Below, one piece after another: positions 43,660-59,411 of a stretch of DNA of 64,000 bases. The first letter of the stretch is position 1. Each line of letters opens with the position of its first letter. Source of the DNA: Acidobacteriota bacterium (GTDB lineage: Bacteria; Acidobacteriota; Terriglobia; Acidiferrales; UBA7541); NCBI GenBank assembly GCA_013289585.1, contig JABCZR010000011.1:62001-126000 (forward strand), in the 5' to 3' direction. The translations under genes and the position numbers were made by a program. The notes beneath the pieces were generated by a model that did no database searches, was not told the DNA's origin, and was given only the letters and a program-made list of their open reading frames with translations.

Positions 43660-43671
43660 GTAACATACGTG
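43660..43671. repeat. Left attachment-site repeat (attL core)
   Basis: GTAACATACGTG occurs here and again at 59400-59411, bounding the 15.7-kb element. Flanking bases differ. It lies 114 bases upstream of the second TonB-family gene. Confidence 0.65.
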
Positions 43672-43750
43672 AGTCCGATGCTCGTTCAAAAGCCCCGTGT
43701 TTACACGGCGTTGCAAACACCGCGCCTCTGCCAATCAGTACGTTTTAGTA
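43664..43750. repeat. 87-bp direct repeat, left copy
   Basis: Nearly identical (one indel, few mismatches) to 44425-44511. It contains the att core CATACGTG, a hairpin CCGTGTTTACACGG and CCAATCAGTACGTT. Together with its second copy it brackets the Rap1a-like gene and a 57-residue gene. Confidence 0.75.
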
Positions 43751-43773
43751 CGTTAGATTGAACAGTGAAAATT

Positions 43774-43947
43774 TCAGCGACTGCCCTTGCGACGCCCTTT
43801 GCGAGGCCCTTTGCGTCTGCCAGTCTTGGCTGTTTCAGACCGTGAATTTATTCGCGCGCGCCCGGAAGAGCGCATCACACTTTCCGGCGTGATCTTCTGG
43901 TCCAACTTCGTCTTGTTCTTAATTTCCTCAAGAGGCTGTTCGTTCAT
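43774..43947 (-). CDS. 57-residue protein with Arg/Lys/Gly tail
   Basis: A short gene beginning ATG at 43947 behind AGGAGG seven bases upstream (GGTTAGGAGGAGACGAG). Residues 1-25 are mixed charged (MNEQPLEEIKNKTKLDQKI); residues 43-57 repeat RRKG/PRKG (GRRKGPRKGRRKGSR). The tail suggests nucleic-acid or phosphate binding. No family recognised. Reads out of the 87-bp repeat region in the same direction as the Rap1a-like gene, whose stop is 48 bases upstream. Confidence 0.65.
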   Translation of the reverse strand: MNEQPLEEIKNKTKLDQKITPESVMRSSGRARINSRSETAKTGRRKGPRKGRRKGSR

Positions 43948-43995
43948 CTCGTCTCCTCCTAACCACTGCGTATACGCGCGTCGCCTGTGTTTGAG

Positions 43996-44349
43996 TCATT
44001 GCGCCTTGCACGGAAACGCTTGTCCCATAGCCTTCACAACGAGAATTGCCGCCTGGAGGTGTCTTTCCTCGGGGTGGTCTTTCAAATACTTTACAACGAC
44101 GTCCCTGACTTGACCGTTGCTTACATTTTCTGCGACGCACGACCTTCGACGCTCTGGAAACACAGCGCTGTCCATTCCTTCAACGTCAGTTACTCCGATG
44201 ATGTAGCCGAGGCAAAACGCGTGCTCCAAATTACCCTTTGACTCGCACGACTCCAAAAGGTCGTTGCCGGTTGTCGTGGATACCCGCTGACCATGAGCGG
44301 AGGCACTGACCAGCAAAAGAAGGAGCGCTGACAAGAGAAATTTCGTCAT
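43996..44349 (-). CDS. Rap1a/Tai-type immunity protein
   Basis: A 117-residue exported protein starting MTKFLLSALLLLLVSASAHGQ with GAGG seven bases upstream. The mature part has GNDLLESCESKGNLEHAFC, LGYIIGVTDVEG, CVAENVSNGQVRDVVVKYL and AFPC, the four-Cys helical fold of Rap1a/Tai immunity proteins that neutralise type VI amidase effectors. No effector or secretion gene lies near it, so it is an orphan immunity or a domesticated fold. Flanked by 87-bp repeats inside the element. Confidence 0.75.
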   Translation of the reverse strand: MTKFLLSALLLLLVSASAHGQRVSTTTGNDLLESCESKGNLEHAFCLGYIIGVTDVEGMDSAVFPERRRSCVAENVSNGQVRDVVVKYLKDHPEERHLQAAILVVKAMGQAFPCKAQ

Positions 44350-44424
44350 GGGGTAACCTCGCGCGAAGGTTATCACGCGCTTAGGCTGTCGGGCTAGCTC
44401 GCCTCTTCAACCATTCCCAATCGC

Positions 44425-44511
44425 ATACGTGAAGTCCGATGTTCGTTCAAAAGCCCCGTGTTTACACGGCGTTGCAAACACCATGCCTCTGCCAATCAGT
44501 ACGTTTCAGTG
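44425..44511. repeat. 87-bp direct repeat, right copy
   Basis: Second copy of 43664-43750, again with CATACGTG, the CCGTGT/ACACGG hairpin and CCAATCAGTACGTT (44492-44505). The 761-bp spacing brackets two genes. Confidence 0.75.
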
Positions 44512-44675
44512 CGGTCAACCGGCTCGGTGGTTTGTTGCCGATGGAACGCGCGATCTGACGCTGTATAGGCAAGCCGTTCGACGGTGTAGTGATTGGATCT
44601 CCCGGGTGGAACGTACGTGTGCAGCAAAGATTGTGCAGTGAAGCTCGGTGTGATTTGGTAGTCGGCAGTGAAAGG

Positions 44676-44927
44676 TTACGGCAAAACAGCGGCCAGCAAG
44701 CTGACCATGCGCCGCTTCAATCTTTCCATTTCAGCTTCCCGCGCCTTTTGCTCTTTCAGGTCGGGCAGCGGCGGTGTTGTGGCGTGAATCAGCAGGGTCC
44801 ATTCCTGTTTCATGCTCCTGGCTTGGTCGGCTGCCTCTCCGCTAGCCGTAGGAGATTCGGCAACCTTTTGGCACAGCACGGCCAGTTGCGTAAGGTCCAT
44901 GCGTTCCAGTTCTTCTTTCGTGGGCAT
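44676..44927 (-). CDS. Small helical protein, unknown
   Basis: An 83-residue protein (MPTKEELERMDLTQLAVLCQ ... EMERLKRRMVSLL) predicted to be almost all helix, with an amphipathic end. No ribosome-binding site stands out before 44927. Unrecognised. It continues the minus-strand row of small genes at the left of the element. Confidence 0.5.
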   Translation of the reverse strand: MPTKEELERMDLTQLAVLCQKVAESPTASGEAADQARSMKQEWTLLIHATTPPLPDLKEQKAREAEMERLKRRMVSLLAAVLP

Positions 44928-44975
44928 AGCTAGCGCCGTCCGCTGCGACGAGTCGGTTGTTCGTCCATCGCATTC

Positions 44976-45164
44976 CTACGATTTCGGTAGAGCAGAGAAG
45001 ACGACAACAAAGTGATTCGGTGCTGTCGGTATTGGGGCGTGGATAACAGCCTTCACTCGGTGCGCAGCCGACAGGTCGCCGACATTCGGTAGCAAACCCC
45101 AACTTGGCGGCAATCGTTCGCCATTTTCCAGTTCGTAAGTCAGGAACTTTATCTCTTTTGTCAT
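44976..45164 (-). CDS. Small element-encoded protein, unknown (62 aa)
   Basis: A 62-residue protein (MTKEIKFLTYELENGERLPP ... HFVVVFSALPKS) with alternating hydrophobic strands at its C-terminus. GGAGG lies seven to eight bases before the ATG at 45164, within a hairpin (45174-45199) shared with the neighbouring small gene. No family recognised. Confidence 0.65.
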   Translation of the reverse strand: MTKEIKFLTYELENGERLPPSWGLLPNVGDLSAAHRVKAVIHAPIPTAPNHFVVVFSALPKS

Positions 45165-45173
45165 CGCGCTCCT

Positions 45174-45199
45174 CCTGAGCGCCCATTATTACGCTCAGG
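45174..45199 (-). promoter_or_regulatory. Operator-like hairpin with AGGAGG, copy 1
   Basis: On the minus strand CCTGAGCG, then TAATAATGGG, then CGCTCAGG leads directly into AGGAGG of the 62-residue gene. The stem is an 8-bp perfect inverted repeat; the loop carries a TAATAAT that could serve as a -10 box. The same module recurs at 45456-45480. Confidence 0.6.
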
Positions 45200-45446
45200 A
45201 ACGTGCCGCTGTTTTGGTCGATTCCGAGGCTTTCTTCGCATCGTTGAATTGCTGTTCGAAGTCGGCAGTTCTCGTTCCCCTGTTCGCTGGCCGGTTCTCG
45301 TCCTCAACATGATTTAGAGCTTTGCCCACGGCCATCTTCCAGCGTTCGTCCATCGACCCCGCCTTGGTGTCCTTGAAAACCCCACCAGCGACAAAAGCGA
45401 TGTACAAATCTTTCGCCGTGTACTTCACATCGTTTGCTTCCGCCAT
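45195..45446 (-). CDS. Small element-encoded protein, unknown (83 aa)
   Basis: An 83-residue protein (MAEANDVKYTAKDLYIAFVA ... KKASESTKTAARS) with an ordered first half and a charged, Ala/Ser-rich tail. The ATG at 45446 sits six bases after AGGAGG, which overlaps the second hairpin. Its stop codon lies inside the first hairpin of the next gene. Unrecognised family. Confidence 0.65.
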   Translation of the reverse strand: MAEANDVKYTAKDLYIAFVAGGVFKDTKAGSMDERWKMAVGKALNHVEDENRPANRGTRTADFEQQFNDAKKASESTKTAARS

Positions 45447-45455
45447 CACGTTCCT

Positions 45456-45480
45456 CCTGAGCGCCCATTATACGCTCAGG
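45456..45480 (-). promoter_or_regulatory. Operator-like hairpin with AGGAGG, copy 2
   Basis: On the minus strand CCTGAGCG, then TATAATGGG, then CGCTCAGG and AGGAGG before the 83-residue gene. Here the loop contains a perfect TATAAT. Arms are identical to copy 1; only the loop length differs by one base. Confidence 0.6.
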
Positions 45481-45593
45481 CGTCTACTGATGTGCCGGTC
45501 CGCACGGCCCAGTACGCCCCGGCCACCGTCAGTACGACAAACCTCTTGTCCGACCGATGAGAACTTGAAGAAGGTTCCCGGCAGGAGGAAGTC

Positions 45594-45794
45594 ATGGCTC
45601 ACAAGCACACGCAAAAGCAGATCGACGAAGTCATCAATAAGTGGCGCGGGAAGCACGCGGTCGAGAAGATGATTGCTGAGTACGACGGTGCAAAGTGGCC
45701 TCGCTACCAGCGGTACAGACTTGAGGGAGGCACCATTTTCCACATCAATTCCGATAATCTGAAGCTGACGATCACGCCGCCGAAACTGCGCTGA
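45594..45794 (+). CDS. Small protein, unknown (66 aa)
   Basis: A 66-residue protein (MAHKHTQKQIDEVINKWRGK ... LKLTITPPKLR) with an N-terminal amphipathic helix and a beta-rich rest (RYRLEGGTIFHINSDNLKL). AGGAGG is positioned six to seven bases before the ATG. It is plus-strand, converging on the SIR2 gene, which ends five bases later. Unrecognised; its place next to a defence operon makes a regulatory or antitoxin-like role possible but unproven. Confidence 0.6.
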   Translation: MAHKHTQKQIDEVINKWRGKHAVEKMIAEYDGAKWPRYQRYRLEGGTIFHINSDNLKLTITPPKLR

Positions 45795-45799
45795 CAACA

Positions 45800-47539
45800 T
45801 CACTCACGTGGTAAGAAGCCCGCACAGTCGGCGTCAGGCCTCAGGTGATCCAGCATCGCCTGATTCTTGTATCCTGTTCCATACTTGCGAATCTCCGTTT
45901 GGAGCAGAGGCCATGCGACCGCATTAAATTGTGGCCAAATTTGGTAAACGCGGTTGGTCGTATACCAGCTATCCCCAATATTTCTGCCACACATTGAAAG
46001 CTGCCTATATAAACCTTCAATTACCCGCCTTTGTGTGGGTTTTGACATATGCACAAATAACCGCGTTGCCCCGACATAGTGCTCCAGGCAGAAGGAATAG
46101 TCACCCCAATCGTTGTACGCTACATCGTATTTCTGAACGAGTGTGCAGTACCTCTGCACAAATCTGTCGATGTCTGGAAGTTGGGGAAAGCTCTGAAGCC
46201 ACCTAGCGATAGTATTTAAGAGCGAATGAAGTACATTGGACTTTCGGACTCGTTGCTTGAACTGTAGGAAGCTTAGCAACATTTCGAGCAGGTCTGTTCT
46301 TCCCCGACGAAGGAAGTCATCGCACCAATGCTCTGCAACTCTTAATATTCCCCGGACTACAAGGTTCAGCTTACCAGGTTCAAACTCCTCCATCGTAGCG
46401 GCCGAACCACTGGCCTGGTAGACGGCCTCGTGAAGCTCGACCAGGTCGAGCATCTGAGCCAGTGAATCGACCTTCTGTTCGTCTTCCATGGAGAGCGCAG
46501 CCGGGTCAATATCCCACGTGATTGAGTCATACCAGATACGATAAGTTCCAATGTCGGCCCTGATCCGGGCTGTGATGTCTACGCGTCCTTGTTCAAAGGT
46601 CTTAAATGTCGACCCTAGTTCCTCGAAGTACTTTTCAATAGAGAAGTTCTCAATGTAGTGGATGCGTTTATGCTTGTAATATGCTTTTTGCTCCGGAGGA
46701 ATGGCGCCGCGAGTCACAAAAAATGAGGGGCGTATCTGCGAAAAGGAATGAGAATCTCCGGGTGATCCCCCAGCCTTCTGATCAAAAAGCACTTCGTGAT
46801 AGATGAACTGAATATTTGGGTCGCTGAGGCTGTAGCCTAGGAACACGACTGTTCGCTCACAAAACAGTGTATACAGCTTGTTGATGATGTAGCGGTCGCT
46901 GCGTAGAAACCTGTGGTAGTCCTCTTCAGTTATGACGATGCTCTGCTCAGGTTCTGGATTGGATACACTACCGTGAATCTTAAGGAGTGTTCGCCCTCCA
47001 CCAGAGGCTGCGGCAAAATCGACATTTCTTATCGGTCGAGATAGAACGATATCAGTTCCAGTATTGATGCCTTCTTCGAAAAAGGTGTCCTCAAGAAAAG
47101 TATCGAAATTAGTTGTGACCCAGATCGGCAGGGGCAATCTCTTGGCAGCCATTAGATGCGATCCCTTTACCAGATGCTTAGCGATTTCGGGATTATAGGT
47201 CTCCATCAAAGCCCTCTGGATAAGTTCGTGGATGCTCGGGACACGCTCTTGATCGCCCGCATGCGTGTCTCTGTTGGCGCGCTCCCGCGCAAGCTCAAAT
47301 TGTTGCGCCAACCGCAGGTATTCGGCGGGATGTACTATTCGATTCTGGCTTTGGTCGTAAACAGCATCGCAATACTTGAAGATTTCGTTGGTGTCACCAC
47401 TCAGCGCAGAGAATACCTGCCGAAGAAGGTCCTGCCAGAGCGGCATACCCGACAAATAGTTCTTCACAAAGCCGGCCCCTACAAAAAGGACGACGTTGCC
47501 TTTAAGGAATTCCTGTCGGAGTTCATAGGGAAGGGCCAT
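45800..47539 (-). CDS. SIR2-domain (NADase-type) protein
   Basis: A 579-residue protein. Residues 15-240 are a SIR2_2 Rossmann fold: GNVVLFVGAGF (NAD loop), WVTTNFDTFLE with Asn144 and Asp146, LLKIHGSV with the catalytic His189, and VVFLGYSLSDPNI. All residues needed for NAD hydrolysis are present. Residues about 300-579 are a large helical domain, probably for sensing or oligomerisation. SIR2 proteins of this size in mobile elements deplete NAD in abortive infection (Thoeris, DSR types). Two bases downstream of the AIPR gene, so translationally coupled to it. Confidence 0.85.
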   Translation of the reverse strand: MALPYELRQEFLKGNVVLFVGAGFVKNYLSGMPLWQDLLRQVFSALSGDTNEIFKYCDAVYDQSQNRIVHPAEYLRLAQQFELARERANRDTHAGDQERVPSIHELIQRALMETYNPEIAKHLVKGSHLMAAKRLPLPIWVTTNFDTFLEDTFFEEGINTGTDIVLSRPIRNVDFAAASGGGRTLLKIHGSVSNPEPEQSIVITEEDYHRFLRSDRYIINKLYTLFCERTVVFLGYSLSDPNIQFIYHEVLFDQKAGGSPGDSHSFSQIRPSFFVTRGAIPPEQKAYYKHKRIHYIENFSIEKYFEELGSTFKTFEQGRVDITARIRADIGTYRIWYDSITWDIDPAALSMEDEQKVDSLAQMLDLVELHEAVYQASGSAATMEEFEPGKLNLVVRGILRVAEHWCDDFLRRGRTDLLEMLLSFLQFKQRVRKSNVLHSLLNTIARWLQSFPQLPDIDRFVQRYCTLVQKYDVAYNDWGDYSFCLEHYVGATRLFVHMSKPTQRRVIEGLYRQLSMCGRNIGDSWYTTNRVYQIWPQFNAVAWPLLQTEIRKYGTGYKNQAMLDHLRPDADCAGFLPRE

Positions 47540-47541
47540 GT

Positions 47542-48765
47542 CTATGCCTTCTTCCCTCGCTGCGCTATAAGTTGAGCGCGCAGCAAACGAAGCTGGATCT
47601 TCATGTGCAGGTTATCCCAGTGTTTGCGGTTCTTCCCTAACTGGTCAGGCATTCGACCAATTTCTTTCGTCGCGTTGTATGTTTCCAAGACGAGTTCCGA
47701 TGCTGCTTCGCTCCACAAACGAAGGACTGACCTAAATCCGCCTTGCCAGGCCGCGTTTCCAGAGGAATCTTGTACAACCATGTTTCGGAATGCCGCCAGA
47801 ATTGGATAGGACGCTCCTTTGGTCAGCCGATAGTCGGTCGAGGGCAAGTTAGCAAATGGGAATTCGAGTTTACGTCCCTTAGATGCTTCCTCGACGATAT
47901 TCATTTTCCCGGCGCTGCCACCAGCCTCGTTATGGATGTCGCGGAAATCGTGGCGAATGTGATCGTAAAGAGTGAGTGCGTCGTTCAGGATTGGTCGCAA
48001 CCTGTAGTATTTGCTGCTTTTTAGCTTCTTGTTGTTCTCTTCATAGTCATTGGCGAACTTCTCGAGGGGGATACTCCATTTTTCGTATGCAGATATCGGA
48101 TGCTTCCCACCGTCATTGGGGAAATCAAATATGTTGAACATCTCCAACACGCTGATGAGATCGCGAACGTCATAATTGGCGTTGTCTGACTCCCGCCACG
48201 AAATCATGTCTTTGTAAGGCTTGCTGGCTACTTCTGCCTTGAGCCAGTCAAAGACACCGTCGATGTTGTAAATGGACTTAGGAGCGACCTGCATGCCAGT
48301 ATTAAGCCCGCGAGCAATGTCTGTAATTAGCTCGTTTTCCACGCCCGTGCGGATAAAAACCTCAACGTACTGTTCAGGATGGGTTGTCCCGTCAATATTG
48401 CACTTCTCGATGATTTTCGCCGTGTGCGCCCCATCGACGATACCGCCATCCTGGTCGTCAACGACTACTTCGAAGACCTGCTTATCCTTGTCGATCAGAC
48501 GAACGCTCAAAGCAAGGATGGTGATTCCCTTGTTCATCAAATCGAAGCTGCCAGGAATTGCTTCCTTGCCTTCGAGACTGGCGCGAACATCGCGATAGAC
48601 CATTCGGTTGAGACCTACCGGCTCACGAGCATTTGCGGCAGAACTAATCCCTGGAGGGAAATCAGTCGCTTTCACTGTCAACCAGTATTTGTTGATTGTT
48701 CCGAAGACGGGATGTGAAACTCTGCGAGATTCGAAAGCAGGAATGCGATGGACCTGTTTGCCCAT
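47542..48765 (-). CDS. AIPR-family (abortive phage resistance) protein
   Basis: A 407-residue protein with MNKGITILALSVRLID near 77-91 and IVDGAHTAKII near 109-119, the NNGIT and DGxHT signatures of the AIPR/DGQHR-related family linked to abortive phage resistance. The rest is mixed alpha/beta with a helical C-terminus. GGGAG lies eight bases before the ATG at 48765, and TATAAG upstream could be a -10 box. First gene of a two-gene operon with SIR2. Mechanism of AIPR proteins is not established. Confidence 0.78.
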   Translation of the reverse strand: MGKQVHRIPAFESRRVSHPVFGTINKYWLTVKATDFPPGISSAANAREPVGLNRMVYRDVRASLEGKEAIPGSFDLMNKGITILALSVRLIDKDKQVFEVVVDDQDGGIVDGAHTAKIIEKCNIDGTTHPEQYVEVFIRTGVENELITDIARGLNTGMQVAPKSIYNIDGVFDWLKAEVASKPYKDMISWRESDNANYDVRDLISVLEMFNIFDFPNDGGKHPISAYEKWSIPLEKFANDYEENNKKLKSSKYYRLRPILNDALTLYDHIRHDFRDIHNEAGGSAGKMNIVEEASKGRKLEFPFANLPSTDYRLTKGASYPILAAFRNMVVQDSSGNAAWQGGFRSVLRLWSEAASELVLETYNATKEIGRMPDQLGKNRKHWDNLHMKIQLRLLRAQLIAQRGKKA

Positions 48766-49012
48766 TACAGTACTCCCTTATATTTGAGCGGACGGTGCCG
48801 CCGATTCGTCGAGTGCACGAGGGCACCGACGAACACAGAATATCACAATTCGCATTTCGCGCAATCGAAATGGCCGGGCCTAAGGGTTCACGGCCCTTCC
48901 TTTACCGGCAGTTCTTCGTCGGCCTTTCTTGGTGGGCGCAATGAGAGGCGCGGTGGCATTACGGCGGGGGGTGCTACCGGCGTCTCCTGCCGTTGAACCT
49001 TCGCTATGCGTA

Positions 49013-49603
49013 TCAGTAAGGCGCTTCCTCCAGCTCCCATTCTGAAACTCGCGCTTCCATCGAACGTACTCCCTCCAGCTTGGGCACGTTGCCATCCGGA
49101 TAGAGAAAGCATCGACGGTTACGATACTGAGTCTCGGCGTCTGCCCATCGGCAGTTGGTCGGCGCATAGTGCGCCTGCACGTCAATTCGGTCCAGCGTCT
49201 TGCCGCTTGGGCGCGGACCCAAATCGTCAATGAAGTTTTTGAAGCCTTGACAGCGAGGAAGGAGCCATCGCTCGCAGATTCGGATGCCACGACCGCCGTA
49301 GCTGGCGTACTCATTATTATTCCTGTTCAGGCACCTAGTCTTCATTGACGAATACGAATTGTACTCTGCCGAGTACCGCCGTAGGCTTCGGCCATCTTTC
49401 GTATAGGAACACCGCATGTGACCAAAGAAAGAGTTGACGACCGGAAGGCAACCACAATGGCGTTGAACGTTGTTTGAGAGCAAGCTTCGCCAGACCGTGA
49501 GTTCATTTCCACAGTCACAGACACAGAGGAAAATATCAGGCGCGATTTCTTTGCGAATTGTAAGCAAACCGAACTTGCCTGAGAGGAAGCTCAAGAGCAC
49601 CAC
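49013..49603 (-). CDS. Phage-type zinc/HNH-like protein (CRWA family)
   Basis: A 196-residue protein with an N-terminal CVCDCGNEL...HCGCL zinc-ribbon and a central region YNSYSSMKTRCLNRNN, YGGRGIRICERW, TLDRIDVQAHYAPTNCRWAD, ETQYRNRR. This layout (YGGRGI, LDRxD, NCRWA, QxxNxR) is common in uncharacterised phage proteins related to HNH/AP2 DNA-binding modules. The start is a GTG at 49603 and may lie further upstream. The 247 bases between it and the AIPR gene hold nothing recognisable. Confidence 0.65.
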   Translation of the reverse strand: MVLLSFLSGKFGLLTIRKEIAPDIFLCVCDCGNELTVWRSLLSNNVQRHCGCLPVVNSFFGHMRCSYTKDGRSLRRYSAEYNSYSSMKTRCLNRNNNEYASYGGRGIRICERWLLPRCQGFKNFIDDLGPRPSGKTLDRIDVQAHYAPTNCRWADAETQYRNRRCFLYPDGNVPKLEGVRSMEARVSEWELEEAPY

Positions 49604-49651
49604 CCTAGTTGGCCCATTGCCTGTTACCAGTTTTGGAGTGAGCTTGGAAGC

Positions 49652-49720
49652 ATGGGCGGCAAACTAACAACGGAAGAGTTCGTGAGCAGGGCGCTCAAAC
49701 TCCACGGCAGGTACACCTAA
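49652..49720 (+). pseudogene. 22-residue remnant of a DUF723-like N-terminus
   Basis: A short frame with a good ribosome-binding site (TTGGAAG) encodes MGGKLTTEEFVSRALKLHG before stopping. KLTTEEFxxxAxxxHG is the usual opening of DUF723-type phage and satellite proteins of several hundred residues. The rest is absent, so this looks like a truncated copy. Confidence 0.4.
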
Positions 49721-49804
49721 CGAAATACTTAGGGGTGTCTCACGACTAAGCTACTGAAGTTTCCCTCGTCCAGCGATGTTCATTTCCGGGTCTCGTTTTT
49801 CCTC

Positions 49805-49852
49805 TTGACAGATAAAGATGCCTGTAGTAGGTTTACAAACGTGTGTAGTAGG
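49805..49852 (+). promoter_or_regulatory. Promoter and probable BlaI operator
   Basis: TTGACA at 49805-49810 is a consensus -35 box. TGTAGTAGG occurs twice as a direct repeat (49823-49831 and 49844-49852), 21 bp apart, i.e. two helical turns, around TTTACAAAC. GTAGTA/TTTACA elements resemble BlaI/MecI half-sites. It ends 10 bases before the blaI-like ATG, consistent with autorepression. Confidence 0.6.
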
Positions 49853-49861
49853 AACGTCGCG

Positions 49862-50248
49862 ATGACTTTGCCAAAACTGACGAGATTGGAACTGCAAATC
49901 ATGGACGCCCTCTGGACCCGCGGCGCATCCTCCATCCGCGAAATCCAAGAAGCTTTCCCCGAGCGCGTTCGGCCTGCCTACACGACCGTGCAGACCACCG
50001 TTTATCGCATGGAGCGCAAAAAGGTCCTCCGCCGGGTCAGAAAGATCAGCAACGCCCATATCTTCGAAGCAGTCATCTCGCGCCACGCCGCGCAGGGCCG
50101 ACTGATTGACGAACTGTTGAGCTTGTTCGGGGGCCGGACACAGCCAGTCATGGCGCACCTGGTCGAGTCCGGCAGGCTAACCCTTGAAGACGTGAAAGAA
50201 GCGGAAAAGAGCCTGCGAAGACTATCGAGGGAAGGCAAGTCCAAATGA
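49862..50248 (+). CDS. BlaI/MecI/CopY-family transcriptional repressor
   Basis: A 128-residue winged-helix repressor. The ATG at 49862 starts the conserved MTLPKLTRLELQIMDALWTRG; the recognition helix region is AYTTVQTTVYRMERKKVL, and the C-terminal helices mediate dimerisation. In this family a partner BlaR1-type sensor peptidase cleaves the repressor. Its stop codon overlaps the M56 gene start (ATGA), so the pair is one operon autoregulated at the operator just upstream. Confidence 0.92.
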   Translation: MTLPKLTRLELQIMDALWTRGASSIREIQEAFPERVRPAYTTVQTTVYRMERKKVLRRVRKISNAHIFEAVISRHAAQGRLIDELLSLFGGRTQPVMAHLVESGRLTLEDVKEAEKSLRRLSREGKSK

Positions 50249-52071
50249 GCTCTCTTCCACTTGTGATAGTTTTCTCTCCTTGGTGGGCCGCGATCGGCGC
50301 ACCATTAGCCAACCACTTGTGGCAATCCACCCTTTTTGCCGCGGCGGCAGGGTTACTGACGCTCCTTCTCCGAAGAAACCACGCGAAAGCGCGTTACTGG
50401 CTATGGTTCACCGCATCCGCAAAATTTCTAATTCCGTTTTCCCTACTCGTCAGCATGGGAAGCCATCTCGGCTGGTCAAAAGTTCCTGGAACCACACCGC
50501 CAGGACTCTTCTTGATGCTGCAAGGAATCGGCCAGCCTTTTGCGCCGGCAAGCCAAAGTTACCCTACTGTGCCCGCCCCCACAAACGGCCTCGCTCTGAT
50601 AACTCGTGCTCTGCCAACTCTTCTTCTCGTTGCGTGGCTCTCCGGCTTCGCAGCCGTCCTCTTTTTCTGGTTGTCCCGCGTGCGACGCATGGCCGCTGCC
50701 ACACGTGGAGCTGTACCAATGCAGTCCGGACGTGAATTCGACACGTTGCGCTGTCTGGAAAGACAGGCAGGACTCGCCAATCCCGTCGGCCTCATCATCT
50801 CCAAATCCGCTCTCGAACCCGGCATTCTGGGCATCTTTCGCCAGATCCTGGTTGTTCCCTCAGGCATTTCCGACCGCCTGACACTGGCGCAGTTGGAAGC
50901 AATCCTCGCCCACGAACTGTGTCATGTTCTACGCCGAGACAATCTCGCCGCCGCGCTTCACATGCTGGTCGAAGCCCTCTTCTGGTTTCATCCTCTCGTC
51001 TGGTGGCTCGGCGCGCGCTTGGTTGACGAGCGCGAGCGCGCCTGCGATGAAGATGTACTCCGCCGTGGAAGCGACCCGCAAGTCTATGCCGAAAGCATTC
51101 TGAAAGTTTGTGAGTTCTACCTGGAGTCGCCGCTGTTCTGCGCAGCGGGGGTAACTGGCTCAAATCTCAAGAAAAGAATCGAGGTCATCATGCTTCACCG
51201 CACACCGGTCAACCTTAGCTTCGGTCGCAAGCTTGTGCTCAGTTCAGTTGGGTTCATCGCCGTTGCCGTCCCGTTCGTATTCGGCCTGCTCCACGCCACC
51301 CAAACCCGCGCCCAGTCGCAGCCCCTAGATAAGGGCGAGACCGCAGCCGTGTTCGAGTCCGTATCGATCCATGAAGACAAAACCGCCAGCGGCATGTTCG
51401 GCTTTGGGTGGTTTTCATCCGAAACGTTCACCGCCAACGGCGCCACACTGCAGCAGCTCATTCGTGAGGCCTACGGAGTTGAAGACGACCAGATCCTGGG
51501 AGGGCCAGACTGGGTAAGGACCGGACGATACGATATCAAAGCGAAAATGGCCGGCGGTGTAGCAGACGAGCTGCGGAAGCTCAACACAGATGAGGGCGAA
51601 TTTGCGTACCTGCATACGCTTCAGCCGCTATTGGCGGACCGCTTCAAACTGGCGCTCCACCACGAAACCAGACAAGTTCCCGCATACGTGCTGGTCGTCG
51701 CGGAAAACGGCCCGAAACTTCAGGAGGCGAAACCTGGCGACACTTATCCCAATGGAATGAAAGACCTTGATGGCCACGGCCATGGGGACATCATGCGCTT
51801 TGGAAGGGGCCTGTTAACAGGTCAAGGAATTTCTATCCGACAGCTAGTAAAGGGGCTGTCAAAACAGCATTTGGATCGTTTAGTTGTGGATAATACTGGG
51901 CTCAAGGGCAAATATGATTTCACTCTTCAGTGGACACCCGATGTCTCCGGATCGGCCGGTCCTTCCCTGTTCCAGGCACTAGAAGAGCAACTCGGCCTGA
52001 AACTCGAACCACGCGAAAGCCCCGTCGAGGTCCTCGTCATAGACAATATTGAGAAGCCTTCGGAGAACTAG
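50245..52071 (+). CDS. M56/BlaR1-type metallopeptidase fused to a TIGR03435 domain
   Basis: A 608-residue sensor-like protein. Four N-terminal helices surround the zinc peptidase site HELCH (His223, Glu224, His227), with ERERACDEDVL as the third ligand region. A further helix near 330-350 leads to an extracytoplasmic TIGR03435 domain (about 370-605; FTANGATLQQLIREAYGV, LLADRFKLALHHETRQVPAY, LKGKYDFTLQW). This fusion is typical of soil Acidobacteria. It should sense an external signal and inactivate the BlaI partner. Its presence inside the element suggests carried cargo. Confidence 0.9.
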   Translation: MSSLPLVIVFSPWWAAIGAPLANHLWQSTLFAAAAGLLTLLLRRNHAKARYWLWFTASAKFLIPFSLLVSMGSHLGWSKVPGTTPPGLFLMLQGIGQPFAPASQSYPTVPAPTNGLALITRALPTLLLVAWLSGFAAVLFFWLSRVRRMAAATRGAVPMQSGREFDTLRCLERQAGLANPVGLIISKSALEPGILGIFRQILVVPSGISDRLTLAQLEAILAHELCHVLRRDNLAAALHMLVEALFWFHPLVWWLGARLVDERERACDEDVLRRGSDPQVYAESILKVCEFYLESPLFCAAGVTGSNLKKRIEVIMLHRTPVNLSFGRKLVLSSVGFIAVAVPFVFGLLHATQTRAQSQPLDKGETAAVFESVSIHEDKTASGMFGFGWFSSETFTANGATLQQLIREAYGVEDDQILGGPDWVRTGRYDIKAKMAGGVADELRKLNTDEGEFAYLHTLQPLLADRFKLALHHETRQVPAYVLVVAENGPKLQEAKPGDTYPNGMKDLDGHGHGDIMRFGRGLLTGQGISIRQLVKGLSKQHLDRLVVDNTGLKGKYDFTLQWTPDVSGSAGPSLFQALEEQLGLKLEPRESPVEVLVIDNIEKPSEN

Positions 52072-52140
52072 AATAGACGGAGTGCTCGATGGCTCCAACC
52101 TTTGGCTAAGTCCTGGTAAAGCGCTTACCGGACAAGTCAG

Positions 52141-52497
52141 CTACACGCGTGATTTAGAACTCCTGAACGGCAGGACGCCAGTAACGCGCTCGCATAGACC
52201 GGCGAGTTCCTTCGGCGACATTTTCTCCAATGCTCTCAGGTGCGCGTATCCCGGAAGCACAGCTCCAATTCGAAACTCCTGCGCCTTCTTTTCCAGCACT
52301 GGGTCTTTAAAAAGCTTGCCGTGAAGCTCAAAACACTCCATCTCCGCCTCGTTCCCTTTTAGGAAGCCGTGCTTTCTGGCGAAGGTTAGAAACGCAGGGT
52401 CGTTGAAGTCGAAGCGGACGGACCTCATCGCTCCGGAATCGAGAAGCTTCTGGGCAAAAGCGATGCGGTCTAAATCGGCTTGGGAAATCTTGTTCAT
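52141..52497 (-). CDS. Element protein, unknown (118 aa)
   Basis: A 118-residue mostly helical protein (MNKISQADLDRIAFAQKLL ... LAGLCERVTGVLPF). AAAGGA lies about ten bases before the ATG at 52497. It is immediately downstream of the small terminase gene on the same strand, so a packaging-related role is possible. No family recognised. Confidence 0.6.
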   Translation of the reverse strand: MNKISQADLDRIAFAQKLLDSGAMRSVRFDFNDPAFLTFARKHGFLKGNEAEMECFELHGKLFKDPVLEKKAQEFRIGAVLPGYAHLRALEKMSPKELAGLCERVTGVLPFRSSKSRV

Positions 52498-52509
52498 TTT
52501 GAGCGTCCT

Positions 52510-53040
52510 TTAAGCAGGCATGCCATCATTGTTTTGGGCTATTTTCTTGGCGTGTTCTTGGAGTATGAAATCCACCGTGCCCGGAAGTGGGCCGTCGGCT
52601 GCTTCGTGCGGCTGCGTTGGTTTGGCCTTCTCGCGGTCAACTGGAGTTAAGCCGAGTGATTTTGCCAACGAAATCATTTTTGACTCACACGTCTCCACAG
52701 TTTTCAAAAGTGGATTAAGTCGCCGCACAATTCTCGCAACTCCGTGAGAGTCAAGCAGGGTTGTCTCCAGCATTAAGGAATCGCCTATCTCGCGCTTCGC
52801 CTGCTGCCAGCGCGCGTAGACCTCCGAATAAACAGCCAGAATTACTGTGTCGGCTGGCGTGACTGTTCCGCGCACTTCGAGAAGCTGGACGCAACGCTTG
52901 AATTCCTGCTTTGCGACCTTGGACAAGTGTTTCGGGAAGACGGGCCGCCCGCCTTGAAAATGGCTCGGCGAAGAGGGCTTTGCTTGGCTTACAGTTCCCT
53001 TCAACCAGTTCTCGTGTTGGGTTTTCGGTTGTCGCGGCAT
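52510..53040 (-). CDS. Phage terminase small subunit, P27 family
   Basis: A 176-residue protein. ATG 53040 has AAAGGA eight bases upstream. The fold starts at RPVFPKHLSKVAKQEFKRCVQLLE, followed by TPADTVILAVYSEVYARWQQAK and ETCESKMISLAKSLGLTP, the P27-type small terminase pattern. Small terminases choose the DNA to be packaged and recruit the large ATPase/nuclease subunit. No large terminase is encoded in the element, the arrangement of phage satellites that hijack a helper phage packaging motor. Confidence 0.8.
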   Translation of the reverse strand: MPRQPKTQHENWLKGTVSQAKPSSPSHFQGGRPVFPKHLSKVAKQEFKRCVQLLEVRGTVTPADTVILAVYSEVYARWQQAKREIGDSLMLETTLLDSHGVARIVRRLNPLLKTVETCESKMISLAKSLGLTPVDREKAKPTQPHEAADGPLPGTVDFILQEHAKKIAQNNDGMPA

Positions 53041-53515
53041 CACAATTCCTTTTAGGGTTGCGCCGGCGCTGCTTTGGGACAGCGCCGACGCGGTATTCCT
53101 CCGACGGCGAGTTCGGAAGAAATTCTTAAAGCAAAATTGTTTTGGAAATCTCGCCAGTACATCTGCCGCGTGTTACGGGCGTTTGGCCGCCGTCTGTATC
53201 ACATTCCCGACCTTCCAACTTTGCCAAATCCTGTTCCCACTCTGTTGAGAAAGCCGGTCAGAAGGAGACCTCAAAGACACGCGAAGGATAAGGAATGGGG
53301 CCTCAACGAATCAGGAAATCGTGCGAATGGTAAGAACATGAACGCGTCTCAATCACAGAAATGTGTAAAAAGCCAAGCGGCGGTTGCAGGGCGATTAACT
53401 TCAGCGAAAATGGACGGGCTATGGTCTGTTTTTCAGCCAGGTAGGAATGTCTCTAGCAACACAGGAGTTAGCAGACATCCTCGGCTCGCGCTCCACTTGA
53501 TCCCGCATTCTCAGC
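53041..53515. other. Non-coding region upstream of the small terminase
   Basis: About 475 bases between the 53-residue gene and the terminase without a supported frame. A hairpin, CGGCGCTG at 53064-53071 with CAGCGCCG at 53080-53087, lies just before the terminase ribosome-binding site on the minus strand. It may hold a late promoter, a packaging site or the scar of deleted genes. Confidence 0.4.
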
Positions 53516-53677
53516 TCAGCCTGCCTTACTTGCTGCCCTGCTTTTGCCAGCCTGTTCAAGCCTGCTTGCTAGTCCTCGGTTTGTACCACGTAGTCCGGCT
53601 AAATGCCGGGCTTTCTGCTTTGCTTTGAGCTTTGCCGCGTGCCTGGAGTTTGAGGGCTTGAGGAAGCCCCTGTTCAT
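53516..53677 (-). CDS. 53-residue basic protein coupled to HNH
   Basis: Its ATG (53677-53675) overlaps the HNH stop codon as ATGA. The product (MNRGFLKPSNSRHAAKLKAK ... RAASKAG) is strongly basic and Ala-rich. No separate ribosome-binding site, as expected for translational coupling. No family recognised; possibly a DNA-binding accessory of the HNH/terminase unit. Confidence 0.45.
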   Translation of the reverse strand: MNRGFLKPSNSRHAAKLKAKQKARHLAGLRGTNRGLASRLEQAGKSRAASKAG

Positions 53678-54111
53678 GGCTTGGAGGAGTAGTCGCGTAT
53701 CTTGCCTTCGACGAGGGCGGGCTTTGGGGCCACGTAGCCTTTGCCGCCGTGCTCGCTTCCGGTTTTCTCGTCGTGGCATCCCTTACACAGGCCTTGCAGA
53801 TTCTCGAAGTCGTAAAACAGGATTGGATTCCCTCGGTGGTCAATTTTGTGGTCGGCAACGACGGAAGGATTTCGGTTGCACTTTACACAGATGGGATATT
53901 TCCGCAGGCAGGCTGCTCTTAGGCCGGATGCCGGATGTCTCCAACGCGAACTATCGTAAAGGGATTTCCACTCGCGCTGTCTGTCGTACATCCTTCTCGT
54001 CTGACCGGGAGCGGGCTGTAGTTTGGATTGGCAAGCTTCGCAGTAGCCTCGTTCGGAGGCGTGACCGGGGCAGCCGGGCGTCCTGCACGCTGTTGGTGGT
54101 CTCTCGCCCAT
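53674..54111 (-). CDS. HNH endonuclease
   Basis: A 145-residue nuclease. An N-terminal Cys-rich segment (CRTPGCPG, CEACQSK) resembles the zinc finger of phage HNH proteins, and the HNH core is CVKCNRNPSVVADHKIDHRG, FENLQGLCKGCHDEKT. GGAG precedes the ATG at 54111. Phage HNH proteins of this type sit beside terminase genes and assist cos-site cleavage with the large subunit. Here it lies in a leftward operon with the small terminase. Confidence 0.85.
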   Translation of the reverse strand: MGERPPTACRTPGCPGHASERGYCEACQSKLQPAPGQTRRMYDRQREWKSLYDSSRWRHPASGLRAACLRKYPICVKCNRNPSVVADHKIDHRGNPILFYDFENLQGLCKGCHDEKTGSEHGGKGYVAPKPALVEGKIRDYSSKP

Positions 54112-54113
54112 TA

Positions 54114-55013: not shown

Positions 55014-55039
55014 CTGCGACAAATCAAGGAGAAACAGTG

Positions 55040-55912: not shown

Positions 55913-55936
55913 AAATTTCTAGGTTGGAGGTGAAAG

Positions 55937-56122
55937 TTGAACCGAACAGAAGTACTTAGGAAATTGGACGGCATCCTTGCCCAAGCCGAACTGGAAAAGA
56001 CATTCGGCTGCATCGAAATGGACCTCCGCGCCGGCCGAGTGGTCATACTTCGCAAGACTGAGACTGAAAGATTTGAAGATCAAACAATGAGGGAAACAAC
56101 CCATGCTAAGAATTTCAGATAG
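55937..56122 (+). CDS. Small protein upstream of the replication gene (61 aa)
   Basis: A 61-residue protein from a TTG start with GGAGG nine bases upstream (GGAGGTGAAAG). Sequence MNRTEVLRKLDGILAQAELE then a short beta segment (GCIEMDLRAGRVVILRKTE). Its end overlaps the replication gene start by 20 bases, so the two are translationally coupled. Unrecognised; could be a replication accessory or copy-control protein. Confidence 0.6.
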   Translation: MNRTEVLRKLDGILAQAELEKTFGCIEMDLRAGRVVILRKTETERFEDQTMRETTHAKNFR

Positions 56123-57731
56123 CCAACTCAAGCTCCTAGAAAACATCCCCCAAGAATTGAGTCTCCCGAAGCTCTGGTTGGGATACTACCTCGCGCCAAA
56201 TTCAAATAAACCAGATAAGAAGCCGAACAAGCGTCCTTGCGTTAAGTGGGGAACGCCTGAACTTCGGGTTGCAAACCTTCGTTCGCTGGATTACCTCTTA
56301 ACCGAGCGCGAACTGCAAGCCGGATACCAGCGATGGATAGATAAAGACGAGGGCCTCGTTTACGTAGATCTTGACCACGCCAGAAATGCGGCAACTGGCG
56401 AAGTCGAGCCGTGGGCGAAGGCAATCATTGACACGCTGGACACTTACTGCGAGGTCTCAGCAAGCGGGACTGGCTTTCATTTGGTCTGCCGCGGAAAGCT
56501 CGATGAGGACTTCTACTGGCCTGGTCAGCCCGTCGAAATCTACGCAGGCAACATAAACAAGCTGATGGCGATGACGGGCGACATTTATGAGTTCAACCCG
56601 ACCATAAACGACCGCCAGTCTGAAGTCGAAGCCCTTCTGAAAGAATGGCAGGCCAAAGTCGGCCCCGATCCTGAGAAGGCCGTGAGCAAAGAACCGACCA
56701 AGCCGGACAAGGAAGTGCGTCCTTGGCGAGAAGTTTTTCATACTGGAAGCGAATTAGGCGGAAGGCCGTCGAGGGTTTTCATCAAAGGAATTTTGGAAGA
56801 AGGAATAACATACTTCGGCGCTCTTAGCGACACAGGCAAAACGTGGATTGGACTTTCCATTGCACATGCGCTGATAACCAAAGAAAAGCTTTTTGGTCTC
56901 TATCCCGTCCTGAACAAATGCAATGTGCTTTACCTCGTTCCCGAAATGGGCGGAAGCAAATTCAAAGCTCGACTCGAAAAGATGCGGCTCCCGATGGACG
57001 GAAGCTTTTTCTGCCAGACCGTTCAGGATGGCGCAATTGACCTGAACGATGCCTCTCTCCTCCAAGCAATTCGTGAGATGCGGCCGGCCGTCATTTTGGA
57101 CACCGCCATCCGATTCCAAACTGGTGACGAGCAATCCTCAACCGAACAGGCGCAAGGGCTTGGCGCGAAGTTTTTCCGACTGATACGCGAAGGCGCTCAA
57201 CTCGTAATTTGTATGCACCACCGAAAGAAGGACGCCGGAGACGTAGAGCCCACGCTGGAAAACACGCTTCGCGGAACTGGCGACTTCGGTGCGATGGCCG
57301 ACTGCGTCTGGTGCGTGGAGACCGCCAAGCAGCGGAAGGGCAAAACGTGGGACGAGGAATACACGAAGGATTCCAAGGCACTCACTCGGCTGGCGCTAAC
57401 CAACGTCAAGAGCCGGGACATGATTGACCTCGCGGACCCGTTCGTTATCCAGGGACGGCCCCACATCGATCAGAAGGGCGACTTTGTTGTGCTGGCCGAT
57501 GTGCCGAATCTAGGATGCTCCCAGATGAATGATGACGCCGCCGCTATAAAGGCTGTTCTCGGCATTGCCACTGTCGGTTCCACGATTGGATTGCTGGCCA
57601 TCAGAAAACATACGGGATACAGCACTGACCGCGTTAAGAGAATTTTAGACGAGGCTGGCCGGAAGAAGGAAGACGGTGTGTGGGTTCAGGGAACGGTTGA
57701 AGTTTCAGACTTGGGCAGCGGTCGGTTTTGA
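56103..57731 (+). CDS. Satellite/plasmid replication protein: PrimPol-like plus RecA-like ATPase
   Basis: A 542-residue replication protein. The N-terminal half is a primase-polymerase-like module with YVDLDHAR (Asp89, Asp91) and SASGTGFHLVCRG (His126). The C-terminal half is a RepA-type RecA-fold ATPase with Walker A LSDTGKTW (Lys246), Walker B region RPAVILDTAI and LVICMHHRKKD. A winged-helix-like tail (IRKHTGYSTDRVKRILDEAG) may bind the iterons that begin seven bases after its stop codon. Together these make a self-sufficient initiator. Confidence 0.82.
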   Translation: MLRISDSQLKLLENIPQELSLPKLWLGYYLAPNSNKPDKKPNKRPCVKWGTPELRVANLRSLDYLLTERELQAGYQRWIDKDEGLVYVDLDHARNAATGEVEPWAKAIIDTLDTYCEVSASGTGFHLVCRGKLDEDFYWPGQPVEIYAGNINKLMAMTGDIYEFNPTINDRQSEVEALLKEWQAKVGPDPEKAVSKEPTKPDKEVRPWREVFHTGSELGGRPSRVFIKGILEEGITYFGALSDTGKTWIGLSIAHALITKEKLFGLYPVLNKCNVLYLVPEMGGSKFKARLEKMRLPMDGSFFCQTVQDGAIDLNDASLLQAIREMRPAVILDTAIRFQTGDEQSSTEQAQGLGAKFFRLIREGAQLVICMHHRKKDAGDVEPTLENTLRGTGDFGAMADCVWCVETAKQRKGKTWDEEYTKDSKALTRLALTNVKSRDMIDLADPFVIQGRPHIDQKGDFVVLADVPNLGCSQMNDDAAAIKAVLGIATVGSTIGLLAIRKHTGYSTDRVKRILDEAGRKKEDGVWVQGTVEVSDLGSGRF

Positions 57732-57737
57732 TGCTTG

Positions 57738-57922: not shown

Positions 57923-58195
57923 CATTTTTGAGGCAGCGAAGTTAGTTCACGGTGCTCTCAGCCCCACTGAGAGCGCCAACCCGCAGGGATGCAGGTGGAC
58001 GGCCCGGCGGGGCGGCGGCTTGGCGTCAATTCCTTCCAAGCAATCAACCACGACTTCGGATCAGGGTCGTGTTAAGTGGAAAACAATCGATTGATCGTGG
58101 AAAGGGCGCCGCTATTGCCAACGCCCTTGTTTTCCACAACCGAGTCGTTAGAGCCTACCAACGCAACGCCGTCGAGTACGGGCAGAAGAGGGCCT
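57923..58195. other. Non-coding region between origin and integrase
   Basis: Contains a perfect hairpin GCTCTCAG/CTGAGAGC (57954-57974) and a second structure, GTGGAAAACAA (58076-58086) paired with TTGTTTTCCAC (58127-58137) with an inner GGGCG/CGCCC stem. No gene supported; the integrase promoter should be here. Confidence 0.4.
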
Positions 58196-59371
58196 GTGGC
58201 AAGACGACGCTTTCAGAAAGGCTGTTTCGTTAAGGAAGGCAACGGGGGAATGTACAGCCAGCACTACGTCGACGCGGTGAGACCGGACGGGTCCGCTGTG
58301 ACGAAACAGGTGAAGAAGTTCATCGGCAATCTCCAAACAATGTCCGAGCGGGCTGCCCGTCGCGAGCACGACCGGATTATGCAGGACGTGAATCTCAAAC
58401 GTGGAAGCCTTGCGCCTGTTCCGAAAGGGCAGACTTTCGCCGACGCGGTCACTAACTGGCGGAAGGCTATTGCCCCTAACCTTTCACCCGCTACCGTCCG
58501 CACACGTGAGTCCCACTTCCGGACGCACATCATCCCTCGATTCGAGCGGATGGGCCTGAACGAAATAGGCGTCCACCAGATGCAGCAATTCGCTACTGAC
58601 TTGAGACAGTCCGTCTCGCGGTCCACAACGACTGGAGTTATCTGCACGACGTTCTGTGTGCTGGAATACGCAGCCAAGTGTGGCATGCGCGTTTCCGGCG
58701 TGAAGCCCGACGACATAGAATTCGGCGGATGCACCGAGAGGACCGTAGTTCCCTTCTTCACGCGTGAGCAGGCCACGCATATCGTTGATGAAGCGTGTGA
58801 GCCGTTCAAGACGCTGTTTTCCCTGGCATGGTTCACCGGCATGCGAGCTGGCGAAATCTTGGCTCTCACGCTGAATGACCTGGACTTTGCGAATAAGACG
58901 ATTTCAGTCAGCAAAGCAGCCGACGATGCCACACGCATTGTTCGGCAGCCCAAGACGAAGTTCTCCAACACAGTGCTTCCGATGCCGTCCGCTTTGGAAT
59001 TCGTGTTGCGGAACTACCTTATGCACTGGAAGCCGAATCCTGCCGGCATCCTTTTTGCTAACAGGAAAGGCACGCGCTCGATGTCACGAGACAGTGTCGT
59101 GAAGACTGGCCTTCATCCGGTCCTGCGAAAGCTAGGCATTCCGACACGCGACACTGGTCTTCATGCGTTTCGGCATGGACTCGCGACGCAGTTGCTTGAA
59201 GCGAGCGTCCCGCTTACCGTGCTGCAAAAGCAGCTCCGACACGCAGACATAGCGACTACGCTGCGCCTGTATACTCACGCAATTCCACAGTCGCAACGCG
59301 ACGCGATGGAATGCGTTAGCCTCCAATCAGTACGTTCAATCAATACAGTACTGAAATTCGGGAGTAAGTGA
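58196..59371 (+). CDS. int: Tyrosine recombinase/integrase
   Basis: A 391-residue integrase starting at a GTG (58196); an upstream in-frame ATG gives a non-conserved extension. The N-terminal VARRRFQKGCF opening is a common acidobacterial integrase start, followed by an arm/core-binding domain (about 85-170). The catalytic residues are all present: Arg217 (GMRAGEIL), His323 and Arg326 (HAFRHG), His349 (LRHADI) and Tyr359 (LRLYTH). Its 3' end carries CCAATCAGTACGTT, repeated at the left end. It integrates and excises the element. Confidence 0.93.
   Translation: MARRRFQKGCFVKEGNGGMYSQHYVDAVRPDGSAVTKQVKKFIGNLQTMSERAARREHDRIMQDVNLKRGSLAPVPKGQTFADAVTNWRKAIAPNLSPATVRTRESHFRTHIIPRFERMGLNEIGVHQMQQFATDLRQSVSRSTTTGVICTTFCVLEYAAKCGMRVSGVKPDDIEFGGCTERTVVPFFTREQATHIVDEACEPFKTLFSLAWFTGMRAGEILALTLNDLDFANKTISVSKAADDATRIVRQPKTKFSNTVLPMPSALEFVLRNYLMHWKPNPAGILFANRKGTRSMSRDSVVKTGLHPVLRKLGIPTRDTGLHAFRHGLATQLLEASVPLTVLQKQLRHADIATTLRLYTHAIPQSQRDAMECVSLQSVRSINTVLKFGSK
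59323..59336. repeat. Arm-type repeat CCAATCAGTACGTT in the integrase 3' end
   Basis: The 14-mer CCAATCAGTACGTT also occurs at 43731-43744 and 44492-44505 near the left end. In the excised circle the copies would stand at about 64 and 60 bases on either side of the att core, as arm-type sites should. Confidence 0.6.
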
Positions 59372-59399: not shown

Positions 59400-59411
59400 G
59401 TAACATACGTG
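59400..59411. repeat. Right attachment-site repeat (attR core)
   Basis: Second copy of GTAACATACGTG, 29 bases after the integrase stop codon. Defines the right end of the element. Confidence 0.65.

What the first reader, a model, noticed from the sequence alone, without database searches (positions are those of the whole stretch)
45800..48765. Two-gene AIPR-SIR2 operon, candidate anti-phage defence system
AIPR (DGAHT near 111) and SIR2 (Asn144, Asp146, His189 intact) are separated by two bases and lie in a mobile element. SIR2 NADases execute abortive infection in Thoeris and DSR systems; AIPR is linked to phage resistance but has no defined mechanism. I do not recognise this exact pairing as a named system. 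Model: AIPR senses or gates, SIR2 depletes NAD.
Basis: partly seen in the sequence, partly recalled or inferred. Interest (0 to 1): 0.85.

Follow-up and report, generated by a model that had tools for sequence, protein, structure and literature searches.

The report
Two unlinked defence genes, side by side
Two genes of the kinds bacteria use against viruses sit back to back in a mobile DNA element, but their relatives elsewhere live apart, so this looks like two separate defences that landed together rather than a new two-part system.

Summary
AIPR (47542-48765, minus; PF10592) and SIR2 (45800-47539, minus; PF13289) are intact, two bases apart, with D111-G-A-H-T and N144/D146/H189 as stated. 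They lie in a 15.74-kb integrated element, 43660-59411, whose 12-bp att repeat and empty site I located.

The proposed two-gene system is not supported. A same-genus draft genome carries the SIR2 (84% identical) with no AIPR found; a same-family genome carries the AIPR (89%) followed by a different gene. Of 41 AIPR-bearing genomes (396 of the phylum searched), only the window's has SIR2 beside it. In 59 further AIPR-bearing genomes/records no SIR2 was found on the AIPR contig; 50 virus records with SIR2 relatives have no AIPR. AIPR's commonest neighbour is a divergent HTH gene (29 of 57 loci).

Each gene files alone: the SIR2 near PADLOC's single-gene candidate PDC-S25; AIPR in an AbiU-related family, its first ~160 residues resembling the ParB fold. 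Both are under purifying selection. Most likely: two independent defence genes (NADase; ParB-fold nucleotide-binding protein) stacked as cargo, perhaps co-transcribed. Ordinary, apart from a tentative hint that AIPR swaps downstream partners.

The parts
47542..48765 (-). AIPR gene, 407 aa; residues about 19-159 resemble the ParB/sulfiredoxin-like fold with DGAHT at 111-115; helical C-terminal domain
   Evidence: PF10592 3.1e-17; AlphaFold2 mean pLDDT 93.5; six best structural rows are ParB, SspE and KorB chains at Z 4.4-6.1 against 3.1 or less for the rest
45800..47539 (-). SIR2 gene, 579 aa; SIR2-type NADase domain at N-terminus, helical C-terminal half
   Evidence: PF13289 1.1e-24; PADLOC PDC-S25 1.5e-33 over residues 16-249; PDB relatives KomC, ThsA, DSR2
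47540..47553 (-). two-base gap, AIPR stop codon and the Shine-Dalgarno-like AAGAAGG in the last codons of AIPR, upstream of the SIR2 ATG
   Evidence: read directly from the sequence; function inferred
43660..43671 (+). att repeat, left end of the integrated element (GTAACATACGTG)
   Evidence: 12-bp direct repeat; empty site in five of six same-genus genomes examined
59400..59411 (+). att repeat, right end of the integrated element
58076..59371 (+). tyrosine integrase of the element
   Evidence: PF00589 3.1e-25; phrog_1 integrase 6e-53
56103..57731 (+). primase/helicase-like AAA protein of the element
   Evidence: PF13481 5.8e-14; phrog_13901 1.2e-16
52510..53043 (-). phage terminase small subunit
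   Evidence: PF05119 6.9e-17; phrog_83 4e-23
53674..54111 (-). HNH endonuclease of a phage type
   Evidence: phrog_144 7.8e-24
49013..49603 (-). HNH endonuclease, the gene upstream of AIPR on the same strand
   Evidence: phrog_374 2.5e-41; no Pfam match at E up to 1

Best explanation
Two separately mobile single-gene defence modules are stacked as cargo in a 15.74-kb integrative, phage-satellite-like element of an Acidobacteriota genome. Shown: both genes are intact and under purifying selection, both lie inside the element, and their close relatives occur apart. Inferred: they are co-transcribed, with SIR2 translation helped by a ribosome-binding site in the end of AIPR. Inferred: the SIR2 protein acts alone, its C-terminal helical half responding to a phage cue and its N-terminal SIR2 domain hydrolysing NAD+ to stop infection. 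Inferred: AIPR is an AbiU-related abortive-infection protein whose ParB/sulfiredoxin-like domain binds or hydrolyses a nucleotide (DGxHT standing where DndI has DGQQR) and whose helical domain carries the output. Neither needs the other.
For: SIR2 84% identical in same-genus G021, which has no PF10592 match. AIPR 89% identical in G064, followed 12 bp downstream by a 216-aa gene with weak winged-helix matches and not by SIR2. Adjacent in 1 of 43 AIPR-bearing genomes examined (41 plus G064 and G094), the window's own; next closest on one contig is 23 kb apart, in G156. SIR2_2 in 6 of 59 further genomes/records behind AIPR relatives, each time on a contig of another length than the AIPR contig. 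PF10592 in 0 of 50 virus records behind SIR2 relatives, and in 2 of 11 other genomes/records with SIR2 relatives, not adjacent (127 kb apart in G033, other contig in G010). All 53 members of the SIR2 alignment match the single-gene PADLOC candidate PDC-S25; 9 of 53 AIPR members match PADLOC AbiU at E 0.01. Divergent small HTH gene beside AIPR: HTH_3 in 29 of 39 candidate ORFs, from 57 loci. dN/dS about 0.02 (AIPR against G064) and 0.04 (SIR2 against G021), synonymous sites near saturation. AIPR model resembles ParB/SspE/KorB and viral DndB- and GmrSD-like proteins.
Against: The 2-bp spacing is tight and a Shine-Dalgarno-like stretch lies in the end of AIPR, so the genes may be coupled in this genome. 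The two closest AIPR relatives (89% and 75%) also have a gene 12 and 6 bp downstream, so AIPR may work with exchangeable partners. No defence assay exists for either protein. The window AIPR has no PADLOC match even at E=1, and the PDC-S25 match covers only the SIR2 domain. Val25 in the GxGxS loop could lower NADase activity. Most relatives come from draft assemblies or fragments, and no metagenome scan was available.
Confidence: 0.72

Rival explanations
1. AIPR and SIR2 form a real but recently assembled two-gene system: AIPR senses or gates, SIR2 depletes NAD+.
For: Same strand, 2-bp gap, overlapping ribosome-binding site; both intact and under purifying selection in comparison with their separate relatives; some SIR2 defence proteins need a second protein such as HerA or pAgo (PMC11514479, passages).
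Against: No second instance of the pair in 42 other AIPR-bearing genomes of the phylum, 59 further genomes/records, 50 virus records and 11 others with SIR2 relatives; each protein is kept alone elsewhere at 84-89% identity.
Confidence: 0.13
2. AIPR is a partner-swapping module: it heads small operons and drives or restrains whatever second gene (SIR2, winged-helix protein, kinase operon, large unannotated proteins) recombination places behind it.
For: Window and the two closest relatives carry different genes 2, 12 and 6 bp downstream; other loci have 639-735 aa genes 10-22 bp downstream without Pfam match in the three scanned and a Z1-domain gene 117 bp downstream; AIPR in restriction-modification and MORC neighbourhoods is in print (PMC2292703 and PMC3506569, passages).
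Against: Three other close relatives (63, 66 and 55% identical; L011, L012, L013) have no same-strand ORF within 200 bp downstream. Only 10 of 59 loci with an intact AIPR frame in my script, rows L020, L027 and L060 being doubtful ORFs or overlaps, have a same-strand ORF of 80 aa or more within 25 bp. Operon partners in mobile DNA can be random.
Confidence: 0.1
3. The SIR2 is impaired as an NADase, and the locus has no present defence role through SIR2.
For: Val25 replaces the common Ser/Thr of GxGxS, 1 of 53.
Against: N144, D146 and H189 kept; the G021 relative keeps the same Val and dN/dS is about 0.04, so the change is old and tolerated.
Confidence: 0.05

Closest known systems
PDC-S25 (PADLOC-DB single-gene candidate defence system)
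   Same: SIR2 domain at N-terminus, relatives are prophage and plasmid cargo without AIPR; best PADLOC match, 1.5e-33
   Different: Match stops at residue 249; the C-terminal half of the window protein is not covered by the model
AIPR family (PF10592) / AbiU
   Same: Pfam AIPR match; 9 of 53 relatives match PADLOC AbiU; mobile elements; HTH neighbour common
   Different: Window protein itself has no PADLOC match and I recognised no HTH gene beside it
ParB/sulfiredoxin-like proteins in defence (DndB, SspE, DndI, GmrS)
   Same: Modelled fold of residues about 19-159, motif DGxHT at a strand-to-helix junction, as DGQQR lies in DndI
   Different: The Arg of DGQQR, needed for ATP hydrolysis in DndI (PMC11662687, passages), is Thr; no sequence match to a solved member
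KomC, ThsA, DSR2 (SIR2 NADases of other systems)
   Same: SIR2 domain and catalytic His; window H189 aligns with KomC H146
   Different: Partner genes of those systems not seen among the neighbours scanned

Membership tests
PDC-S25 | match to the PADLOC models PDLC04967/04968 in the SIR2 domain | tested here: met
   1.6e-21 and 1.5e-33
PDC-S25 | match along the whole 517-528 aa model | tested here: not met
   only model positions 25-240 of 517 and 15-247 of 528; so filed as PDC-S25-like, not as a member
AbiU | match to PADLOC AbiU | tested here: not met
   no PADLOC match at E up to 1 for the window protein; 9 of 53 relatives match at E 0.01
AIPR (PF10592) | Pfam match above curated cut-off | tested here: met
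   63.7 bits against 25
ParB/sulfiredoxin-like superfamily | fold | tested here: inconclusive
   the top six rows are all of this superfamily (Z 6.1 to 4.4, rmsd 3.4-4.7 A, 97-116 aligned residues) but Z is under 8, and Foldseek against PDB gave nothing at E 0.001
ParB/sulfiredoxin-like superfamily | nucleotide binding or hydrolysis | not testable with these tools
   needs a biochemical assay
DSR1/DSR2 | NCBIfam equivalog cut-off (1400 bits; models of 1263 and 1215 positions) | tested here: not met
   25.3 and 23 bits; 579 aa
Thoeris | TIR-domain ThsB partner beside ThsA | tested here: not met
   no TIR match among the AIPR gene and seven other nearby ORFs scanned
SIR2-HerA, SPARSA | HerA or pAgo partner | tested here: not met
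   the adjoining gene is AIPR; no such match among the neighbours scanned
conserved AIPR-SIR2 system | recurrence of the pair in the same order | tested here: not met
   1 of 43 (the window's own), 0 of 59, 0 of 50, 0 of 11

The most novel reading that the evidence does not exclude
AIPR is a ParB-fold nucleotide switch at the head of small operons that takes exchangeable second genes (here a SIR2 NADase; in the two closest relatives a winged-helix-like protein, and a DUF3010-like protein with a kinase), so that one gate is recombined with many effectors.
Probability: 0.1. Interest if true: 0.65.

Novelty: new member of a known kind. Interest (0 to 1): 0.27.

Why it matters
It removes a false lead: one adjacent pair in one genome is not a new defence system. 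It leaves three useful facts: the exact borders of a small integrative element that carries defence cargo in an understudied phylum; support for placing AIPR proteins, whose mechanism is undefined, near the ParB/sulfiredoxin-like fold with a variant DGxHT motif; and a SIR2 branch with a changed GxGxS loop whose activity can be tested.

Tried and rejected
Named-system match: PADLOC, NCBIfam and PHROGs gave no AIPR-SIR2 system; PADLOC-DB here dates from 2023 and DefenseFinder was not available. Papers, by listing unless a passage call is named: AIPR with SIR2, 2 papers (passages 51, 52); AIPR with phage, 13; PF10592, 2 (passage 53); AbiU1, 2 (passage 110); AbiU, 6 (passage 109); PDC-S25, none; SIR2 defence terms, 27 of which 20 listed (passages 73, 74); Kongming/KomC, 4; ParB/DndB, 1,366 of which 15 listed (passages 88, 89, 90). 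The claim that the pair is unnamed rests on these.

Close SIR2 relatives in virus contigs from the single protein: none. AIPR against the PDB by sequence: one match at E 0.93. Foldseek against PDB: nothing at E 0.001, SspE at E 3.5. The SIR2 model is only fair (mean pLDDT 70.1, pTM 0.57), so I read no function from its C-terminal half. Promoter scan of 45000-50000: 0 found against 3.6 expected from shuffles, uninformative. The phmmer and home-made SIR2 profile searches of AIPR flanks and the home-made AIPR profile on SIR2 flanks (0 of 80) are weak tests: the AIPR profile reaches only 16 of 30 broader AIPR loci at E 10 and 12 of 30 at E 0.001. So I rely on PF13289 and PF10592. The conservation of DGxHT among the genome-contig loci is circular, because that motif was the scan pattern. 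Sibling copies of the element: the primase has relatives in 10 of the other 94 genomes of the order, the best 41% identical over about half its length; I did not compare whole elements. A 14-bp repeat at 43731, 44492 and 59323 was considered as att and rejected because the empty-site comparison places the junction at the 12-bp repeat.

Rows dropped: L003 = L009 = L078 and L004 = L018 are the same contigs by length and match; L063 nearly repeats L062 but was counted; L054, L055 and L057 have interrupted AIPR frames and were left out of the alignment; L058 is cut by a contig end and left out too. Of the 80 SIR2 loci, 66 were distinct by their last 150 residues and 52 entered the alignment (intact ORF of 300-700 aa, not near-identical). 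For one search I gave 50 of the 80, leaving out near-duplicates first.
Full report
What is there. The two ORFs are real and intact on the minus strand: AIPR 47542-48765 (407 aa) and then SIR2 45800-47539 (579 aa), with two bases between. Pfam gives AIPR PF10592 at 3.1e-17 and SIR2_2 PF13289 at 1.1e-24. The quoted residues are correct. The SIR2 ATG is preceded by AAGAAGG, which lies in the last codons of AIPR, so coupling of translation is plausible.

Which organism. 

Where it lies. A 12-bp direct repeat, GTAACATACGTG, stands at 43660-43671 and 59400-59411 and nowhere else in the window. I fetched the region around ileS from six same-genus genomes (of the 12 others with an ileS match). In five of the six, window positions 43670-43678 and 59400 are contiguous, with one copy of the repeat (one end base changed in two of the five) in place of the 15.74-kb insert; in the sixth, G033, the alignment stops short on both sides (43229 and 59523) and tells nothing. 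The insert carries a tyrosine integrase at its right end, a primase/helicase-like protein, a small terminase subunit, two HNH endonucleases, a BlaI/M56 pair and a Rap1a-family gene. Its G+C is 0.49-0.57 per kilobase, against 0.56-0.62 in the 8 kb to the left and 0.57-0.60 in the 4 kb to the right. I recognised no large terminase, portal or capsid gene among the ORFs scanned, but did not scan every ORF. 'Phage-satellite-like' is inference.

Does the pair recur? SIR2: of 95 genomes of the order, 10 (the window's own included) match the window SIR2, only G021 closely (84% over the full length). G021, a draft 95% complete, has no PF10592 match, and on its 6.1-kb SIR2 contig the DNA similarity to the window region is confined to the SIR2 gene. 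AIPR: of the same 95 genomes, 3 match: the window's own, G064 (89%, plus a second weak match of 26% over 125 residues on another contig) and G094 (32%). In G064 the next gene, 12 bp downstream, encodes 216 aa with weak winged-helix matches below cut-off. A scan of genome contigs with an AIPR alignment gave 50 loci and of virus contigs 8. The second closest, L010 (75%), is followed 6 bp on by an ORF with a DUF3010 match below cut-off and then a protein kinase; L011, L012 and L013 (63, 66, 55%) have no same-strand ORF within 200 bp downstream, though L013 has a same-strand 591-aa ORF just upstream without Pfam or PHROG match.

Broader counts. 41 of 396 genomes of the phylum have AIPR. SIR2_2 was then sought in these 41 plus G064 and G094: 19 of 43 have a match (17 over the cut-off), only G000 next to AIPR; G156 has both on one contig 23 kb apart, and the others are further apart or on other contigs. 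SIR2_2 was sought in 59 genomes or records behind the other AIPR loci (26, 33): 6 have one (4 over the cut-off), and in all 6 its contig differs in length from the AIPR contig. From the SIR2 side: PF10592 in 0 of 50 virus records (50 of the 80 loci kept of 105), and in 2 of 11 other records or genomes with SIR2 relatives, 127 kb away in G033 and on another contig in G010. My own AIPR profile also found nothing in the stored flanks of the 80 loci, but it is a narrow profile. Draft assemblies and fragments can break a pair, so absence is not proof, but every test points one way.

What each gene is. SIR2: the best PADLOC matches are the two PDC-S25 models, over the SIR2 domain only. All 53 members of the alignment (window plus 52 virus-contig relatives) match PDC-S25; an integrase was found by two query proteins in 15 of the 80 stored loci. 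Solved relatives by sequence are KomC, ThsA and DSR2 among others; window His189 aligns with KomC His146, the residue changed in KomC(H146N). The fold search agrees, but the model is only fair. A departure is Val25 in GxGxS, shared by the G021 protein. AIPR: the model is good (mean pLDDT 93.5). Foldseek finds no confident PDB match, but in the second look the six best rows are ParB, SspE or KorB chains (Z 6.1 to 4.4), above 3.1 for the next; since Z is under 8 I hold the fold as likely, not shown. In the viral library three matches reach E 0.001: an uncharacterised phage protein, an AIPR protein (TM 0.53) and a DNA-sulfur-modification protein; GmrSD N-terminal and ParB proteins follow with weaker E-values. 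[quoted passage not shown] PMC3506569 also assigns AIPR an N-terminal HEPN domain, which Pfam did not show here. DndI's DGQQR Arg is needed for ATP hydrolysis (PMC11662687, passages); AIPR has Thr there, so binding without the same hydrolysis is possible.

How it most likely works. Both genes are maintained (dN/dS about 0.02 and 0.04, rough because synonymous sites are near saturation). The simplest account is two independent defence genes stacked as cargo: an NADase that depletes NAD+ on infection, and an AbiU-related, nucleotide-binding AIPR protein. In the wider AIPR family the commonest companion is a divergent small HTH gene: 39 of 57 loci have a small divergent ORF upstream and 29 of those 39 match HTH_3; in all three annotated plasmid loci that I opened it is named a helix-turn-helix regulator. 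I recognised none beside the window's AIPR. All mechanistic steps are inference; what is shown is sequence, distribution, element borders and models.

Verdict. Observation confirmed, system claim not. I score it low, with one open thread: AIPR's tight but varying downstream genes in its closest relatives.

Noticed in passing
window 43660-59411: Exact borders of a 15.74-kb integrated element next to ileS: 12-bp att repeat, empty site in five of six same-genus genomes examined.
   Followed up: yes
window 43731, 44492, 59323: A 14-bp exact repeat CCAATCAGTACGTT, two copies near the left end and one in the 3' end of the integrase gene; possibly integrase arm-binding sites.
   Followed up: partly
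window 49805-52071: BlaI-type repressor plus an M56 peptidase fused to DUF3738 on the opposite strand inside the element, between the small terminase and AIPR genes; unusual cargo.
   Followed up: no
L009:3278-3928 (G064): 216-aa gene 12 bp behind the 89% identical AIPR; weak winged-helix matches and a GDGNVV stretch; no clear family.
   Followed up: partly
L054, L055, L057: AIPR relatives with interrupted reading frames (uncultured Clostridiales, Blautia caecimuris, Listeria aquatica).
   Followed up: no
L060, L065, L066: In virus contigs AIPR sits beside packaging genes: large terminase upstream (L060), small and large terminase downstream (L065), HNH downstream (L066); a possible cargo slot shared with the window element.
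   Followed up: partly
window 45800-47539, residue 25: GxGxS loop of the SIR2 domain reads GAGFV; Val is the only one among 53 aligned sequences but is shared by the G021 relative.
   Followed up: yes
L145 (Bacillus phage vB_BmeM-Goe8, MN043729.1 119384-120412): A 161-kb phage carries an AIPR gene of its own, between a tRNA-His guanylyltransferase gene and a sigma-factor gene.
   Followed up: no
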